64,000 nucleotides of DNA. Source: Pollutibacter soli (GTDB lineage: Bacteria > Bacteroidota > Bacteroidia > Chitinophagales > Chitinophagaceae). Shown one piece after another: positions 929-62,963 of this stretch (positions are counted from its first letter, which is position 1; each line of letters opens with the position of its first letter). The stretch is taken from the NCBI GenBank assembly GCA_029269725.1, contig JARJHS010000013.1:61644-125643 (forward strand). Direction: 5' to 3'. The notes under the pieces are model-generated. The model made no database searches and was not told where the DNA came from. It saw only the letters and a program-made list of their open reading frames with translations. The position numbers were made by a program, and so were the translations under genes.

Positions 929-963
929 GTTTTTCGTTGTTCGTTGTTCGTTGATCGTTTTTC
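929..963. repeat. heptanucleotide repeat array (5 units)
   Basis: Directly after the DUF2126 stop codon there are five consecutive 7-bp units, GTTTTTC, GTTGTTC, GTTGTTC, GTTGATC and GTTTTTC. The same units recur at 27588 and 32944, where they abut a hairpin. Confidence 0.8.
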
Positions 964-1066
964 GTTCTGAAATTCAGACCCGGTGAATGGAAAACAACCT
1001 GAATTAAATGAAGGCAGGCTGAGAGATCATCCTCAAATTTTAAAATTTTTGTCGGCATCGTTAACT

Positions 1067-1094
1067 GCAGAGACAATGCATGCGTTGTCTCTGC
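1067..1094. repeat. 28-bp hairpin repeat
   Basis: GCAGAGACAA and TTGTCTCTGC form a 10-bp stem around an 8-base loop. It lies between convergent genes and belongs to the same family as the hairpins at 27651, 28480 and 32972. It has no T-tract, so it is a repeat element more than a classical terminator, although it could still block read-through between the convergent genes. Confidence 0.7.
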
Positions 1095-1132
1095 AAATGA
1101 AACTGTTTATAACTCCGAAGTTCAATTGAATC

Positions 1133-2272
1133 TTATTGGCTGATTTTTGAATTTGGATTCAGGCTTTCAATTGCTGCTACAGACCCCGGACTTATACTTC
1201 TTCTCCTGATTGCCATCTCCTTACTCCTCACTACCTCATGAATAAACGCGAGCTTCTCCACCACCTTTGGTGAAATAACAAAGGGATAAAAATCCTGGTG
1301 ACCCATACTGCGATTGAGACTATTCACTGCAAAACTAAGTGGCAACCACAATTGCATGATCTGGTTGAAATCGCTGATCTCATAAGGATCTTCCTTTACA
1401 GATGCTTTCGATAATTCCTCCCCGGAAGCAGGCCGCGGACGTACGCGGATGCTGAAATAATAGGCGGTTTCCAACGTGTCCATCATGTGCAGGTAATGTG
1501 ACCACGTTTCTGCCCAGTCTTCCCAGGGGTGCGCTGTTGCGTAGGGACTGATATATTCATTCATCCAATTAAATGATAAGCCCTGCTGATAATATTTTTC
1601 CAGCGCCTTCCCGTAATCTGCTCTCTCATCGCCAAACAATTCGCGGAATTTTTCCAGCGGAGACTGGTTGTTGATGAGCAACTCCCAGTAATAGTGCCCA
1701 ATCTCATGGCGGAAATGCCCCAGCAATGTTCTGTAGCGTTCTCCGAGATTCATCAGGTTGCGCATTCGTACATCGTCATCCGCTTCTTCAATGTTTAATG
1801 TGATTATCCCGGAGTCATGACCTGTTGTAACACGTTCTCCTTCCGGCTCATCGGCAAGAAAATCAAACCAGATGCCGCGATCCTCTTTTTCAACCTTTAC
1901 ATCCATGGGAAGTTGTAATCGCAACAATGAAAAAACCAGGCGATGTTTTGCGATTTCAATCTTCTTCCAGCGGACCTGGTTCTGTTCAATACTCAAATCG
2001 GGAATTGTATGATTGAGTTCGCAGGCTTTACAGAATTCTGCGTCTGCATTTTCCGGAATTATCCAGTTGCACGTGCCAAAGGCAAAATTTGAACAATACC
2101 TGAACCTGCGGCTTGCATTGCCTGTTTCTGAAAACAAATTATCTCCTGATGGCACCAGGGCGATCATCGATAAACTTTCTGCGTCAAAACCAATGGCATG
2201 ATTACAATTCAGGCAAACCGAATTTTCGAAATACAGAAGGTTATTGCAGTTGCTGCAGGTATAGAGTTTCAT
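1133..2272 (-). CDS. putative zinc-binding metallopeptidase with N-terminal zinc ribbons
   Basis: 379 residues. Cys6, Cys9, Cys20 and Cys23 form a first zinc ribbon and Cys60, Cys68, Cys81 and Cys84 a likely second one. The catalytic zinc motif HEIGH is at residues 189-193, and a downstream HPWEDWAETWSHYLH segment can supply the third, acidic ligand. This arrangement fits the 'putative zinc-binding metallopeptidase' family, whose substrate is unknown. No signal peptide is seen, so it should be cytoplasmic. It is the last gene of a minus-strand run with the transglutaminase (124 bp upstream) and the ATP-grasp/alpha-E protein. The neighbourhood suggests it trims or removes a peptide made or attached by these enzymes; that role is inference. 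Confidence 0.8.
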   Translation of the reverse strand: MKLYTCSNCNNLLYFENSVCLNCNHAIGFDAESLSMIALVPSGDNLFSETGNASRRFRYCSNFAFGTCNWIIPENADAEFCKACELNHTIPDLSIEQNQVRWKKIEIAKHRLVFSLLRLQLPMDVKVEKEDRGIWFDFLADEPEGERVTTGHDSGIITLNIEEADDDVRMRNLMNLGERYRTLLGHFRHEIGHYYWELLINNQSPLEKFRELFGDERADYGKALEKYYQQGLSFNWMNEYISPYATAHPWEDWAETWSHYLHMMDTLETAYYFSIRVRPRPASGEELSKASVKEDPYEISDFNQIMQLWLPLSFAVNSLNRSMGHQDFYPFVISPKVVEKLAFIHEVVRSKEMAIRRRSISPGSVAAIESLNPNSKISQ

Positions 2273-60758: not shown

Positions 60759-61111
60759 TTACGCAGTTCAAATTTTGCATCTCCTACAAAAATTCTTTCC
60801 GCCCGCATTTCATTCTTGACCTTTTTGTGGGGGTAGCCGTACACCTTTACAGTATTTCCTTCCCTGAGCTTATCTGTGGGAACGTTCCGATCAATCATTC
60901 GTGAAGTAGGAGCAAGTATCACTAACCATTCGGCCTTGTCATTTTTTAGTCTGATACGTGCATGTGGATTTTCAAAAACAAATTCCGTTACGACACCTGT
61001 AAATTCAAAACCTTTCTGTTGATCATAATCCGCCCAGCCATGGTGGAATGGAACAAACGCAAATGATATAACGATCATCGCGGGGAGAACAAGTTTTTTC
61101 AGCGGTTTCAT
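60755..61111 (-). CDS. DUF6152 family periplasmic protein
   Basis: 118 residues. A signal peptide (VLPAMIVISFAFVPFHHGWA) precedes a small beta-barrel with FTGVVTEFVFENPHARIRLK, EWLVILAPTSRM and GNTVKVYGYPHKK, an OB-like pattern. The stretch HHGWADYDQ and the family DUF6152 are often found next to DUF6644-like membrane proteins, as here. Role unknown; the conserved His-His near the leader end hints at metal or cofactor binding, which is speculation. Confidence 0.75.
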   Translation of the reverse strand: MKPLKKLVLPAMIVISFAFVPFHHGWADYDQQKGFEFTGVVTEFVFENPHARIRLKNDKAEWLVILAPTSRMIDRNVPTDKLREGNTVKVYGYPHKKVKNEMRAERIFVGDAKFELRK

Positions 61112-61600
61112 ACAAAAGAATTGAAGGTGATATACAATTTACAAAAGTTTATGCTTGCCTTGTTGGGGAAAATTGGGGACATCATAGAGTTGAAAGTGGA
61201 AGGTTGTATGTTTAAAGAAAAACGGGGAAGGTGAAACGTACAACGCAGAACAAAAAAAAATGCAGTTGTAACAACTTAGGAAATTTCTACCGATGCTTGC
61301 AGCGCGTCATAGGCATTTACCGTATGTCATATTTTTTATATCACCCGGATTTTTGGAAACCTGCTTTTTACTACCTGGCAAAAGTCAAACACAGGAGAGA
61401 CAGGCTGGTTACAAGCCCACAGGGAAAATACAGTGTGATTTTGCTCTTTTCGGCTGCTTCGTAAATACGCTGTTGTTTGCTCTGTGATCTGGTTTTAACT
61501 GGGAAGAAACAATGTCGGAGTCTACGGATATTCCTCAATACCACCTGTATTGTGTATTCAACCTGACTGCATCCATCTGCTCTATGCTGCCTCGTAACAA
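61112..61600. other. intergenic region with a nine-unit heptad array
   Basis: A phase-locked series of 7-bp units spans 61189-61251 (GTTGAAA, GTGGAAG, GTTGTAT, GTTTAAA, and so on to GCAGAAC). The rest of the gap shows no gene I can support; a 77-codon plus-strand frame at 61231 begins inside the array and lacks protein character. Confidence 0.6.
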
Positions 61601-62581
61601 CTATTTACTAATTAACTCGTAACTCCTCCTCCTCGCCTCCTGATCATACAAATGCGTAACGATCATTAATTCATCCACCTTAGTCATCGATACAAATGAA
61701 TCCAGCTTCTGCTTCACCGTTGTCTGATTACCACGAAAACTGAAAGTCATCATTGAATGCAAGGCTGCTTCTTCCCCGCTGGTAAAAAAATCTCCCGGTA
61801 ACTCTTCCGGAGCCTGCAATGCTTTTGGATTGCCTCTGATCACACCCGCGAACATACGCTTGAGTGATGTGGACATCAACTCCGCTTCCCCGGTGGTGTC
61901 AGCTGCAATCACATTTACTGCTGCCATGGCATATGGAGACCTGAGGTATTGCGATGGTTTGAATCGGCTCCTGTAAATCTGTAATGCATCCATCAGGTAT
62001 GTCGGTGCAAAATGACTGGCAAACGCATAAGGCAATCCCAATGCTGCTGCGAGATACGCACTGTCTGTACTGGAACCCAATATCCAAACGGGAATATCAA
62101 CACCCTCGCCGGGAATTGCCCGCACTTTTGCATTTTTATTATCTGCAGAAAAGTATCCCAGCAATTCCTGCACCTGTTCCGGGAAATCATAACCTGCAAA
62201 GCGATCTCTGCGCAAAGCCATAGACGTTACCTGGTCGGTACCTGGTGCGCGACCAAGACCAAGATCAATCCTGTCCGGGAACAAATATCCAAGCGTACCA
62301 AATTGTTCAGCTACCATCAACGGCGCGTGATTGGGTAACATAATCCCGCCGGATCCGACACGAATCGTTTTTGTTCCGTTGGCGATATAGCCGATTAACA
62401 CTGAAGTTGCGGCACTGGCGATGCTTTCCATATTGTGATGCTCGGCCAGCCAGTATCTTTTATAACCTAACCGCTCGCAGGTTTGCGCCAGCAGCAAACT
62501 GTTTTCATAAGTGTCAGTAATCGAATAACCTTCACGCACAGTCGCCAGGTCCAATACCGAATAAGGAATTTTTTTACTCAT
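61601..62581 (-). CDS. LLM class flavin-dependent oxidoreductase
   Basis: 326 residues. Bacterial luciferase-like TIM barrel: YSVLDLATVREGYSI at the start, YWLAEHHNM (His-His-Asn), RVGSGGIMLPNHAPLMVAEQ and IDLGLGRAPGTDQ. This is the subgroup of YhbW-like proteins of about 330 residues that use FMNH2 to oxidise an unknown substrate. No flavin reductase gene lies next to it. It stands alone with a 380-bp upstream gap. Confidence 0.92.
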   Translation of the reverse strand: MSKKIPYSVLDLATVREGYSITDTYENSLLLAQTCERLGYKRYWLAEHHNMESIASAATSVLIGYIANGTKTIRVGSGGIMLPNHAPLMVAEQFGTLGYLFPDRIDLGLGRAPGTDQVTSMALRRDRFAGYDFPEQVQELLGYFSADNKNAKVRAIPGEGVDIPVWILGSSTDSAYLAAALGLPYAFASHFAPTYLMDALQIYRSRFKPSQYLRSPYAMAAVNVIAADTTGEAELMSTSLKRMFAGVIRGNPKALQAPEELPGDFFTSGEEAALHSMMTFSFRGNQTTVKQKLDSFVSMTKVDELMIVTHLYDQEARRRSYELISK

Positions 62582-62963
62582 CTGTTTCTACTATTTATCT
62601 GCCGGAAATGCATTGCAAAATTACACGATGAAGGTTTTCATCCCGGCCCGGCTATAGTCACGGAAAGCGTGAGGGAGTATAGAGGATACCAAATACAGGA
62701 TAAGTTCAGAAAACTGAAAACCGAAAACCTGCCTGCCTGTCCGCCAGGCAAGACAGGCAGGCTGAAAACCTGAAGTTGTTTCACAAGTACATTGCTTAGT
62801 GTATGTTGCCTGCTGCCTAATAATTAACATTTTCCTTGATATCATCGTTGACCCGCTCACCTCAATAATCTTCAAAAAAATGTACCTTGCCTCCATCCTC
62901 CACGACGGATATTTCCGTACATAACAATCAGGTGGAGTTCTGTATTGATATTAACATTAACGT
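62582..62963. other. intergenic region with perfect hairpin
   Basis: GCCTGCCTGTC and GACAGGCAGGC form a perfect 11-bp stem with a 10-base loop at 62731-62762. Heptad-like CAGAAAA, CTGAAAA, CCGAAAA units run into its left arm. Promoters for the two flanking divergent genes should lie here; none is obvious. Confidence 0.6.

What the first reader, a model, noticed from the sequence alone, without database searches (positions are those of the whole stretch)
929..62762. Window-wide family of 7-bp-periodic intergenic arrays (heptanucleotide STRR-like DNA)
Strict 7-bp phasing is visible at 929-963, 2312-2340, 2387-2421, 15853-15894, 17217-17268, 19876-19910, 21734-21806, 27588-27650, 27693-27766, 28437-28464, 32944-32971, 33018-33082, 47068-47095, 50401-50428, 50572-50599, 52927-52975, 53147-53181 and 61189-61251. 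The unit sequence drifts (GTTGTTC, GTTTTTC, CTGTATT, GGAGGCA, TCATTTG) while the phase is kept, and several arrays begin on the first bases after a stop codon. Short tandemly repeated heptanucleotides (STRR) are known from filamentous cyanobacteria; I know of no described Bacteroidota equivalent. The pattern suggests a slippage or copying mechanism that keeps length 7 but not sequence.
Basis: partly seen in the sequence, partly recalled or inferred. Interest (0 to 1): 0.72.

Follow-up and report, generated by a model that had tools for sequence, protein, structure and literature searches.

The report
Facing seven-base repeat arrays between genes
In this Bacteroidota genome and several relatives the DNA between genes is studded with runs of seven-base repeats, many in facing pairs and many starting right at stop codons; they likely grow by copying slips of exactly seven bases while hairpin-guided copying probably keeps facing runs alike, which offers a natural test of how bacteria rewrite non-coding DNA.

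Summary
In 400 kb spread over one contig of the same genome, non-coding DNA holds 56 seven-periodic arrays against 1.2 expected from shuffles (lag 14: 35; other lags at most 5). Coding DNA shows no such excess and 170 kb of E. coli has none. It is not unique: heptamer repeats are in print for five Bacteroidetes, Xanthomonas and Nostoc. Not found in print for Bacteroidota is the anatomy: several words read outward from gene ends, so arrays tend to face each other; they abut stop codons but lie 22-32 bp (median) from starts; many words share one genome; about one in six ends in AACAGCC. A 28-bp palindrome carries a locus-specific inverted repeat of at least 7 bp in 15 of 20 copies. Between two sister species (about 90% identical) shared arrays change length in steps of 7, and at three loci the word differs in both facing arms in phase. 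Best reading: 7-bp slippage plus arm-to-arm template switching, bounded by selection at gene ends. A reverse transcriptase and Ku are not required. An RNA-hairpin function is not excluded; the shared vocabulary and AACAGCC stay unexplained. Novelty: new variant of a known kind.

The parts
929..963 (+). heptad array GTTTTTC/GTTGTTC x5, 5 bp after the stop of 66-923(+)
   Evidence: 0/500 shuffles
2312..2340 (+). heptad array GTTTAAG/GTTGTAC x4; 2319-2341 pairs with 2392-2414 (score 11)
2387..2421 (-). facing arm of 2312-2340, overlaps the 3' end of ORF 2397-3275(-)
15853..15894 (+). heptad array GTTGGAC.., first base after the stop of 13447-15852(+)
17217..17268 (+). degenerate heptad array, 3 bp after the stop of 16239-17213(+)
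   Evidence: identity 0.51
19876..19910 (+). degenerate heptad array, 3 bp after the stop of 17341-19872(+); AACAGCC lies 16 bp further on at 19927
   Evidence: (6/500)
21734..21806 (+). composite array GGAGRCA, then TTAGTTG, then TCATTTG words, 15 bp after the stop of 20306-21718(+); weak facing match 21729-21746 / 21905-21922 (score 10)
27588..27650 (+). nine perfect GTTGTTC units
27651..27685 (.). 28-bp palindrome GTAGAGACGCGATACATCGCGTCTCTAC plus GAACAAC, which inverts the last GTTGTTC unit
27693..27766 (-). degenerate array of TTCTGTA words (other strand GAATACA)
28437..28464 (+). array AGAATAC x4, 7 bp after the stop of ORF 27596-28429(+)
32944..32971 (+). four perfect GTTTTTC units, 29 bp after the stop of 32120-32914(+)
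   Evidence: 2/500
32972..33005 (.). second copy of the palindrome, stem extended by TTTTTC/GAAAAA (6 bp)
33018..33082 (-). weak array, CTGAATT words
   Evidence: identity 0.43; 13/500
47068..47095 (-). array GAACAAC.. (other strand GTTGTTC), 56 bp before the start at 47152
50401..50431 (+). left arm with GGAGGCA words; 50407-50431 matches 50567-50591 inverted (score 15)
   Evidence: (7/500)
50567..50599 (-). right facing arm CTCCTGCCTCC, upstream of ORF 50691
   Evidence: as an array alone not above chance (159/500)
52927..52975 (+). left arm with GGAGGCA words, starts on the first base after the stop of the IMS-family ORF 51424-52926
   Evidence: (3/500)
53147..53181 (-). right facing arm; 53153-53174 is a perfect 22-bp inverted copy of 52929-52950; ends 8 bp before the DnaE2-like start 53190
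   Evidence: (12/500)
61189..61251 (-). degenerate array GTTGAAA/GTACAAC words, 77 bp before the start of 60755-61111(-)
63887..63913 (-). further array (GTAAGTA words on the - strand) running into AACAGCC (GGCTGTT on + at 63886)

Best explanation
These are intergenic tandem arrays of 7-bp units, many set as facing (inverted) pairs and many beginning at stop codons, and they most likely arise by replication slippage in steps of 7 bp, with the two arms of a pair probably kept alike by hairpin-guided template switching rather than by a reverse transcriptase or a transposon. Shown by sequence: the period, the outward polarity of several words, the stop-codon boundary, length steps of 7 bp between sister species, arm-to-arm likeness, and words that differ in both arms in phase. 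Inferred: that slippage makes the steps; that a polymerase switching to the nascent strand copies one arm into the other; that selection on genes, start regions and promoters sets the borders, so arrays run up to the stop, lie further from starts and are depleted between divergent genes. Not explained: why 7, why G-rich (in the sister pair purine-rich) strands run outward, why a genome shares a limited vocabulary, and what AACAGCC does.
For: Slippage: indels inside arrays between G458 and G459 peak at 7 and 14 (7:12, 14:4 against 6:5, 8:2, 13:3, 15:1; lengths 1-4 are the commonest in both classes), not elsewhere (7:11, 6:19, 8:12); of 73 G458 arrays inside alignments 70 are arrays in G459 too, length difference 0 in 33, +7 in 6, -7 in 2, +1 or -1 in 12; identity of units falls with distance 7/14/21/28: 0.707/0.620/0.586/0.526, 0.717/0.642/0.576/0.524 and 0.757/0.704/0.669/0.637 in three genomes (lag 7 is inflated by the selection of arrays, the later steps are not). 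Arm likeness: 0.80 of 35 adjacent pairs in G458 and 0.78 of 58 in G459 match as inverted copies (score 15 or more) against 0.22 and 0.19 with arms of other loci; in this genome, at score 12 or more, 0.38 of 24 pairs in the C1 sample and 0.27 of 73 in the whole sample, against 0.10. Words differing in phase in both arms, AATTAAT against AATTAAG or AATTAGG: 3 of 17 adjacent array pairs aligned end to end (A1@227897, A2@124057, A2@160789, my reading). Palindrome flanks complementary in the first 7 nt: 125 of 140 against permuted mean 83, max 99 of 2000. Borders: stop median 0, start medians 22 to 32 bp; regions with an array: divergent 4 of 48, tandem 17 of 112, convergent 12 of 33 in the C1 sample. 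Template switching makes imperfect inverted repeats more perfect in E. coli (PMC7202029, abstract and opening text) and is argued to create and maintain hairpins (PMC8794818, abstract and opening text).
Against: Order of unit variants in the two arms is barely better than after shuffling units (17.4 against 16.4, above the shuffled mean in 18 of 33; 17.3 against 16.3, 34 of 58; in this genome 7.0 against 6.9, 18 of 64), so exact copying is not shown. At the three in-phase word changes the spacers align poorly (0.56-0.61), so replacement of the whole element is not excluded there. Arms are better conserved than spacers (means 0.82 against 0.73; higher in 14 of 17, my count), which hints at selection, though low-complexity text aligns more easily. 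Slippage does not explain one vocabulary shared across loci, nor AACAGCC at 32 of 189 inner against 2 of 189 outer array ends. Array-bearing regions are only a little less alignable than others (34 of 62 against 54 of 78 above 90%).
Confidence: 0.5

Rival explanations
1. Selected RNA elements: the facing arrays form long stem-loops at transcript ends (3' end protection or termination), and selection on pairing keeps both arms matched and places them at stop codons.
For: Enriched after stops and between convergent genes, depleted between divergent genes; arms more conserved than spacers in 14 of 17 pairs; arms match each other far above other loci; some spacers look like GC-rich terminator hairpins (seen by eye, e.g. 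A2@106324).
Against: In tandem gene contexts stem mismatches show no clear G-U over A-C bias: G-U 11/25/3 and A-C 5/15/12 in G458/G459/G000, 39 against 32 in all; in the sister pair alone the lean is towards G-U (36 against 20). Many arrays in this genome have no matching partner (0.38 of 24 pairs match). No Rfam family matches the window at gathering scores.
Confidence: 0.25
2. Mobile or REP-like elements: arrays are ends or hitch-hikers of hairpin elements moved by a Y1 (RAYT-type) transposase.
For: A 28-bp palindrome with a GTAG foot occurs 20 times at up to 2 mismatches and abuts several long GTTGTTC arrays; four PF01797 matches in the genome, one with an internal stop; the shared motif AACAGCC closes arrays of different words; at many of the 25 alignment breaks where both sister species hold arrays, words and spacers differ (by eye).
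Against: Spacers between arms are mostly unique: another copy in 2 of 26 (G458) and 5 of 43 (G459), within the fetched sample only. The 400 bp printed on either side of the four transposase matches show no heptads or this palindrome by eye. In G458/G459 70 of 73 aligned arrays are shared, so these are inherited in place.
Confidence: 0.15
3. End extension at DNA breaks: broken ends gain telomere-like G-rich heptads at their 3' strand and are then joined, leaving facing arrays with unique filler between them.
For: Predicts the facing polarity and unique spacers; Ku is present in this genome and in G458, G459, G457, G460, G461, G463.
Against: Arrays also occur in G017 (100% complete), G033 (87% complete) and G462, where no Ku was found; no RVT_1 in G000, G458 or G460; 70 of 73 aligned arrays are inherited in place between sister species.
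Confidence: 0.05

Closest known systems
G-rich heptameric repeats GGGAATC (Xanthomonas) and GGGGA(C/T)T (Nostoc sp. PCC7120), PMC4692102 (sections 10 and 16 and found passages read)
   Same: 7-bp unit, intergenic, heterogeneous units; [quoted passage not shown] outward from the gene; 70 and 75 convergent facing pairs in two genomes; few between divergent genes; no function found. The word GGGAATC itself occurs in a Chitinophagaceae relative (L075).
   Different: There the studied words are G-tract words with a four-unit preference and G-quadruplex formation; here many words, most without G-tracts (GTTGTTC, GTTTAAC; AATTAAT in the sister pair), an AACAGCC end motif, and words that differ between sister species at the same locus.
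TAACTGA direct repeats of Beggiatoaceae, Cyanobacteria and five Bacteroidetes, PMC4679880 (abstract, introduction and section 10 read)
   Same: Heptamer arrays, mostly intergenic; other heptamers mixed in; indels in 7-nt steps reported between Cyanothece strains; Bacteroidetes included.
   Different: There one word, in the main genome mostly just upstream of start codons; here words differ and arrays abut stops. TAACTGA is not among the 60 consensus words printed for the 145 arrays.
Cyanobacterial STRR heptanucleotides (Calothrix; seen only as cited in PMC4692102, original paper not seen)
   Same: Short tandem heptanucleotides.
   Different: Different phylum; facing pairs and end motif not described in what I read.
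Long simple sequence repeats with excess of 7-mers (Mrazek 2007, seen only as cited in PMC4679880 and PMC4692102)
   Same: Preference for unit length 7, slippage proposed.
   Different: Defined by exact long repeats; here most arrays are diverged and many are paired.
REP/RAYT elements (recalled; only a search listing seen)
   Same: 28-bp palindrome with GTAG foot; Y1 transposase matches in the genome.
   Different: Arrays are not palindromes; no transposase next to them was seen.

Membership tests
Heptameric simple sequence repeats (Xanthomonas/Nostoc type) | tandem unit of 7 bp, mostly intergenic | tested here: met
   56 at lag 7 against at most 5 at other lags except 14; at score 12 or more 41 in 53 kb non-coding against 5 in 347 kb CDS
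Heptameric simple sequence repeats (Xanthomonas/Nostoc type) | G-rich strand outward from the neighbouring gene | tested here: met
   GTTGTTC outward:inward 50:5 in the whole sample, 16:2 in C1; GTAAGTA 16:0, GGAGGCA 14:0, AGAATAC 17:3; weaker for GTTTTTC 34:17 and GTTGAAA 21:16. Arrays with G>C outward: C1 stops 20:3, starts 9:6
Heptameric simple sequence repeats (Xanthomonas/Nostoc type) | G-tracts able to form G-quadruplexes | tested here: not met
   main words GTTGTTC, GTTTAAC, GTTCATA hold no run of three G; some units of GGAGGCA arrays do; folding not assayed
TAACTGA repeats | unit TAACTGA | tested here: not met
   not among the 60 consensus words printed for 145 arrays
TAACTGA repeats | mostly just upstream of start codons (main genome of PMC4679880) | tested here: not met
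   within 5 bp: stop-side arrays 17 of 25, start-side 2 of 15
Cyanobacterial STRR | tandem heptanucleotides of cyanobacteria | tested here: not met
   heptanucleotides yes, but the host's nearest DnaE2 relatives are Chitinophagaceae and other Bacteroidota
REP/RAYT elements | palindromes flanking or near their Y1 transposase gene | tested here: inconclusive
   four PF01797 matches; 400 bp either side of each read by eye, no such palindrome
Phase-variation repeats | copy number varies between cells and switches a gene | not testable with these tools
   only one genome per species held; the position after stop codons makes switching unlikely
Reverse-transcriptase-made repeats | reverse transcriptase in the genome | tested here: not met
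   RVT_1: no match in G000, G458, G460, G461, G015, G011; matches in 5 of 11 genomes searched

The most novel reading that the evidence does not exclude
Bacteroidota run a heptad-writing process: modules of (7-bp word)n closed by a delimiter (AACAGCC in this genus) are laid down outward from gene ends, stacked one after another with different words, and rewritten in phase on both facing arms between sister species, by an enzyme or repair path with a 7-base step that has not been described.
Probability: 0.15. Interest if true: 0.85.

Novelty: new variant of a known kind. Interest (0 to 1): 0.55.

Why it matters
An excess of 7-bp repeats in bacteria was reported in 2007 (as cited in PMC4692102), and that paper still calls the function open. 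The sister pair G458/G459 gives a system where the step length, the arm-to-arm likeness and the word change can be measured. The outward polarity holds here for words without G-tracts, so G-quadruplexes cannot be its general cause. If template switching is the cause, matched arms and compensating changes would be no proof of RNA function, which bears on covariation arguments in general.

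Tried and rejected
Reverse transcriptase copying: rejected as necessary, no RVT_1 match in G000, G458, G460. Ku-dependent end joining: not required, no Ku found in array-bearing G017, G033 and G462. Known RNA families: none at gathering scores in the window. RNA wobble constraint: no clear bias over three genomes. Words shared across a gene rather than across an intergenic region: 8 across-gene pairs, mean likeness 0.476 against random 0.471. 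Low-power first test of pairing in this genome: 0.505 against 0.471 over 48 pairs, followed by an ungapped score. Array loci as exceptional turnover sites: only weakly supported (34 of 62 against 54 of 78). Same-genus distribution of the exact GTTGTTC word: apart from this genome, 1 of 36 same-genus genomes has a match at up to 2 mismatches; with free words, small samples show lag-7 arrays in G033 (10), G015 (4, fewer than its 7 at lag 8) and G017 (4, with 3 at lags 8 and 9), none in G454. Palindrome in the phylum: 7 of 395 genomes at up to 1 mismatch, this genome included; by eye some copies there have locus-specific inverted flanks of 7 bp or more, some do not. Purine polarity: clear in the sister pair, not in this genome as a whole (start-side arrays 16 purine-rich, 24 pyrimidine-rich outward; stop-side 39 and 25), where G over C is the better description. 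No fold, solved-structure or protein-homology search was made; the only protein scan is Pfam. Papers: searches; the statement that facing arrays, AACAGCC or word change are not in print for Bacteroidota rests on these searches of an open-access library only.

Full report
Observation. All 18 named places show lag 7 as the best of lags 4-12; at 17 of 18 no more than 13 of 500 dinucleotide shuffles reach the observed value, at 50572-50599 159 do. In the window's own genome (G000, 6.12 Mb, 37 contigs, 99.99% complete) 20 stretches spread over C1 give 56 lag-7 segments in 52.6 kb of non-coding DNA, 35 at lag 14 and 0-5 at other lags from 4 to 15; shuffles give mean 1.2, max 4 over 40 runs. CDS has no lag-7 excess, and 170 kb of E. 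coli, coding included, has no lag-7 segment at score 14 or more. Non-coding DNA was defined by my own ORF rules, not by annotation, and the ORF rules differ a little between scripts.

Words and polarity. Arrays in 856 kb (145 at score 10 or more; nearly half of this sample was partly chosen round GTTGTTC matches) use many words: GTTGTTC/GTTTTTC/GTTCATC, GTTGAAC/GTTTAAC, GTTCATA, GTAAGTA, GGAGGCA, AGAATAC. Several read outward from the gene end whichever end it is: GTTGTTC 50 outward, 5 inward in the whole sample, 16:2 in C1; GTAAGTA 16:0, GGAGGCA 14:0, AGAATAC 17:3 in the whole sample. Others are weaker or uninformative: GTTTTTC 34:17, GTTGAAA 21:16, GTTCATC 8:6, and GTTNAAC is equal by its own symmetry. 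Two intergenic regions in the window show the facing pairs best: 52929-52950 is a perfect 22-bp inverted copy of 53153-53174, and 50407-50431 faces 50567-50591. In this genome 0.38 of 24 adjacent pairs in C1 (0.27 of 73 in the whole sample) match as inverted copies against 0.10 with other loci.

Where they sit. Stop-side arrays start at median 0 bp from the stop (17 of 25 within 5 bp in C1; 58 of 72 and 68 of 92 in G458 and G459; overlaps counted as 0), start-side ones at medians of 22-32 bp. Regions holding an array: convergent 12 of 33, tandem 17 of 112, divergent 4 of 48 in C1. Signed distances centre on the stop codon itself, so the array often includes it.

Delimiter. AACAGCC occurs 108 times (both strands) in the non-coding sample against 4-17 for six heptamers of the same composition, 0.47 against 0.07 per kb in CDS, and lies at 32 of 189 inner but 2 of 189 outer array ends. 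An expectation from its own 6-mers is 88 (34 seen against 28 in C1), so the excess is carried by its sub-words too. Modules are chained, word 1 - AACAGCC - word 2 - AACAGCC, for example at L053:7018-7089, L061:14645-14772 and L051:2792-2888.

Palindrome. GTAGAGACGCGATGCATCGCGTCTCTAC (20 copies read, in the window and 18 fetched pieces) has flanks that differ by locus yet are mostly complementary for 7 nt: by distance from the core 18, 19, 18, 17, 18, 18, 17 of 20, then 11, 11, 5, 8; the first seven sum to 125 of 140 against permuted mean 83, max 99. The uninterrupted inverted run is 7 bp or more in 15 of 20; the exceptions are window 32972 (6), L166 (3), L156 (2), L163 (0) and L168 (0). Several of the longest GTTGTTC arrays abut it.

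Relatives. Among 80 named DnaE2 loci (best match Ginsengibacter hankyongi, 76%), 13 hold lag-7 segments of score 14 or more; over all 80 loci lag 7 gives 21 segments, lag 14 gives 15 and other lags from 4 to 15 at most 8. Facing pairs with other words are seen by eye in L075, L078 and L083. In the same genus, in samples of 44-100 kb, G033 has 10, G015 4, G017 4 and G454 none; in G015 lag 8 (7) exceeds lag 7.

Sister species. G458 (Pinibacter aurantiacus record) and G459 (Chitinophagaceae bacterium 26-R-25) align at 89-90% over 271 kb. Adjacent arms match at their own locus (score 15 or more in 0.80 of 35 and 0.78 of 58) far above other loci (0.22 and 0.19); the left arm is purine-rich in 28 of 30 and 46 of 50 inverted pairs; spacers are mostly unique within the sample. 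At 78 alignment breaks both species hold an array in 25, only one in 13, neither in 40; by eye words, sometimes the period (7 against 9 bp), and spacers often differ there. These breaks are a selected set: 34 of 62 array-bearing regions align over more than 90%, against 54 of 78 without arrays. Of 73 arrays inside alignments 70 are shared, at mean identity 0.83; length differences are 0 (33), +7 (6), -7 (2), +14 (1), -14 (1), +1 or -1 (12) and scattered others. In 17 adjacent array pairs aligned end to end (not all inverted matches; two share an arm) arms are 0.82 and spacers 0.73 identical; in three (A1@227897, A2@124057, A2@160789) most units of both arms differ by the same word change, AATTAAT against AATTAAG or AATTAGG, with phase kept; the spacers there align poorly (0.56-0.61), so replacement of the whole element is not excluded.

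Mechanism. Steps of 7 and decay of likeness with unit distance fit slippage; arm likeness and palindrome flanks fit template switching, a process documented in E. coli (PMC7202029; see also PMC8794818; abstracts and opening text seen). Unit order gives little support for exact copying, arms being better kept than spacers fits selection as well, and neither slippage nor switching explains the vocabulary or AACAGCC. I put the slippage plus switching model at 0.5, RNA hairpins at 0.25, mobile elements at 0.15, break-end extension at 0.05.

Known kinds. The published Xanthomonas/Nostoc heptamers share unit length, place, outward polarity and facing pairs (PMC4692102) but are G-tract words; TAACTGA repeats (PMC4679880) include Bacteroidetes. 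This is a new variant of that kind: many words without G-tracts, an end motif, and words that differ in phase between sister species.

Noticed in passing
50691-56414: A likely mutagenesis cassette: ORF 50691-51422 (no Pfam match), IMS-family ORF 51424-52926 and a DnaE2-like polymerase 53190-56414, with facing GGAGGCA arrays in the region before it and between its last two genes. The imuA-imuB-dnaE2 naming is recalled, not from a call.
   Followed up: partly
59273-60252: Three tandem copies of a 331-bp unit, 93% matches, beginning AAATTGGTCGAGCCTCACGGCTC; unexplained.
   Followed up: no
48890-48956 and 49106-49184: 18-bp repeats AGACCTGCCAGGTTTAGA; a palindrome of similar text lies elsewhere in the genome (L037:14115-14161).
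   Followed up: no
L032:19716-19751, L040:2291-2326, L054:3950-3985, L057:11710-11745, L069:9059-9094: A second dispersed 36-bp perfect palindrome family CCAGGTATCCGATACTTGCAAGTATCGGATACCTGG and variants, 5 of 18 palindromes found in the sample.
   Followed up: no
G458/G459 loci A2@44795, A2@8848, A1@255001, A1@204375: Facing intergenic repeats with period 8 (AATTTGAA) and 9 (CACTAAGGG, ATTTTCATG) occur in the same species, some nested inside 7-bp arms (by eye); lag 8 gives 37 and lag 9 gives 8 segments in G458.
   Followed up: partly
L171-L174: Four Y1 transposase (PF01797) matches in the genome, one with an internal stop; repeats such as GCTCCGGCGGAGC near L172 may be their targets.
   Followed up: no
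window 20096-20131, 56604-56622: AACAGCC also sits inside another repeat family reading CGCAGAG/CGCGGAG, so the motif is not confined to heptads.
   Followed up: no
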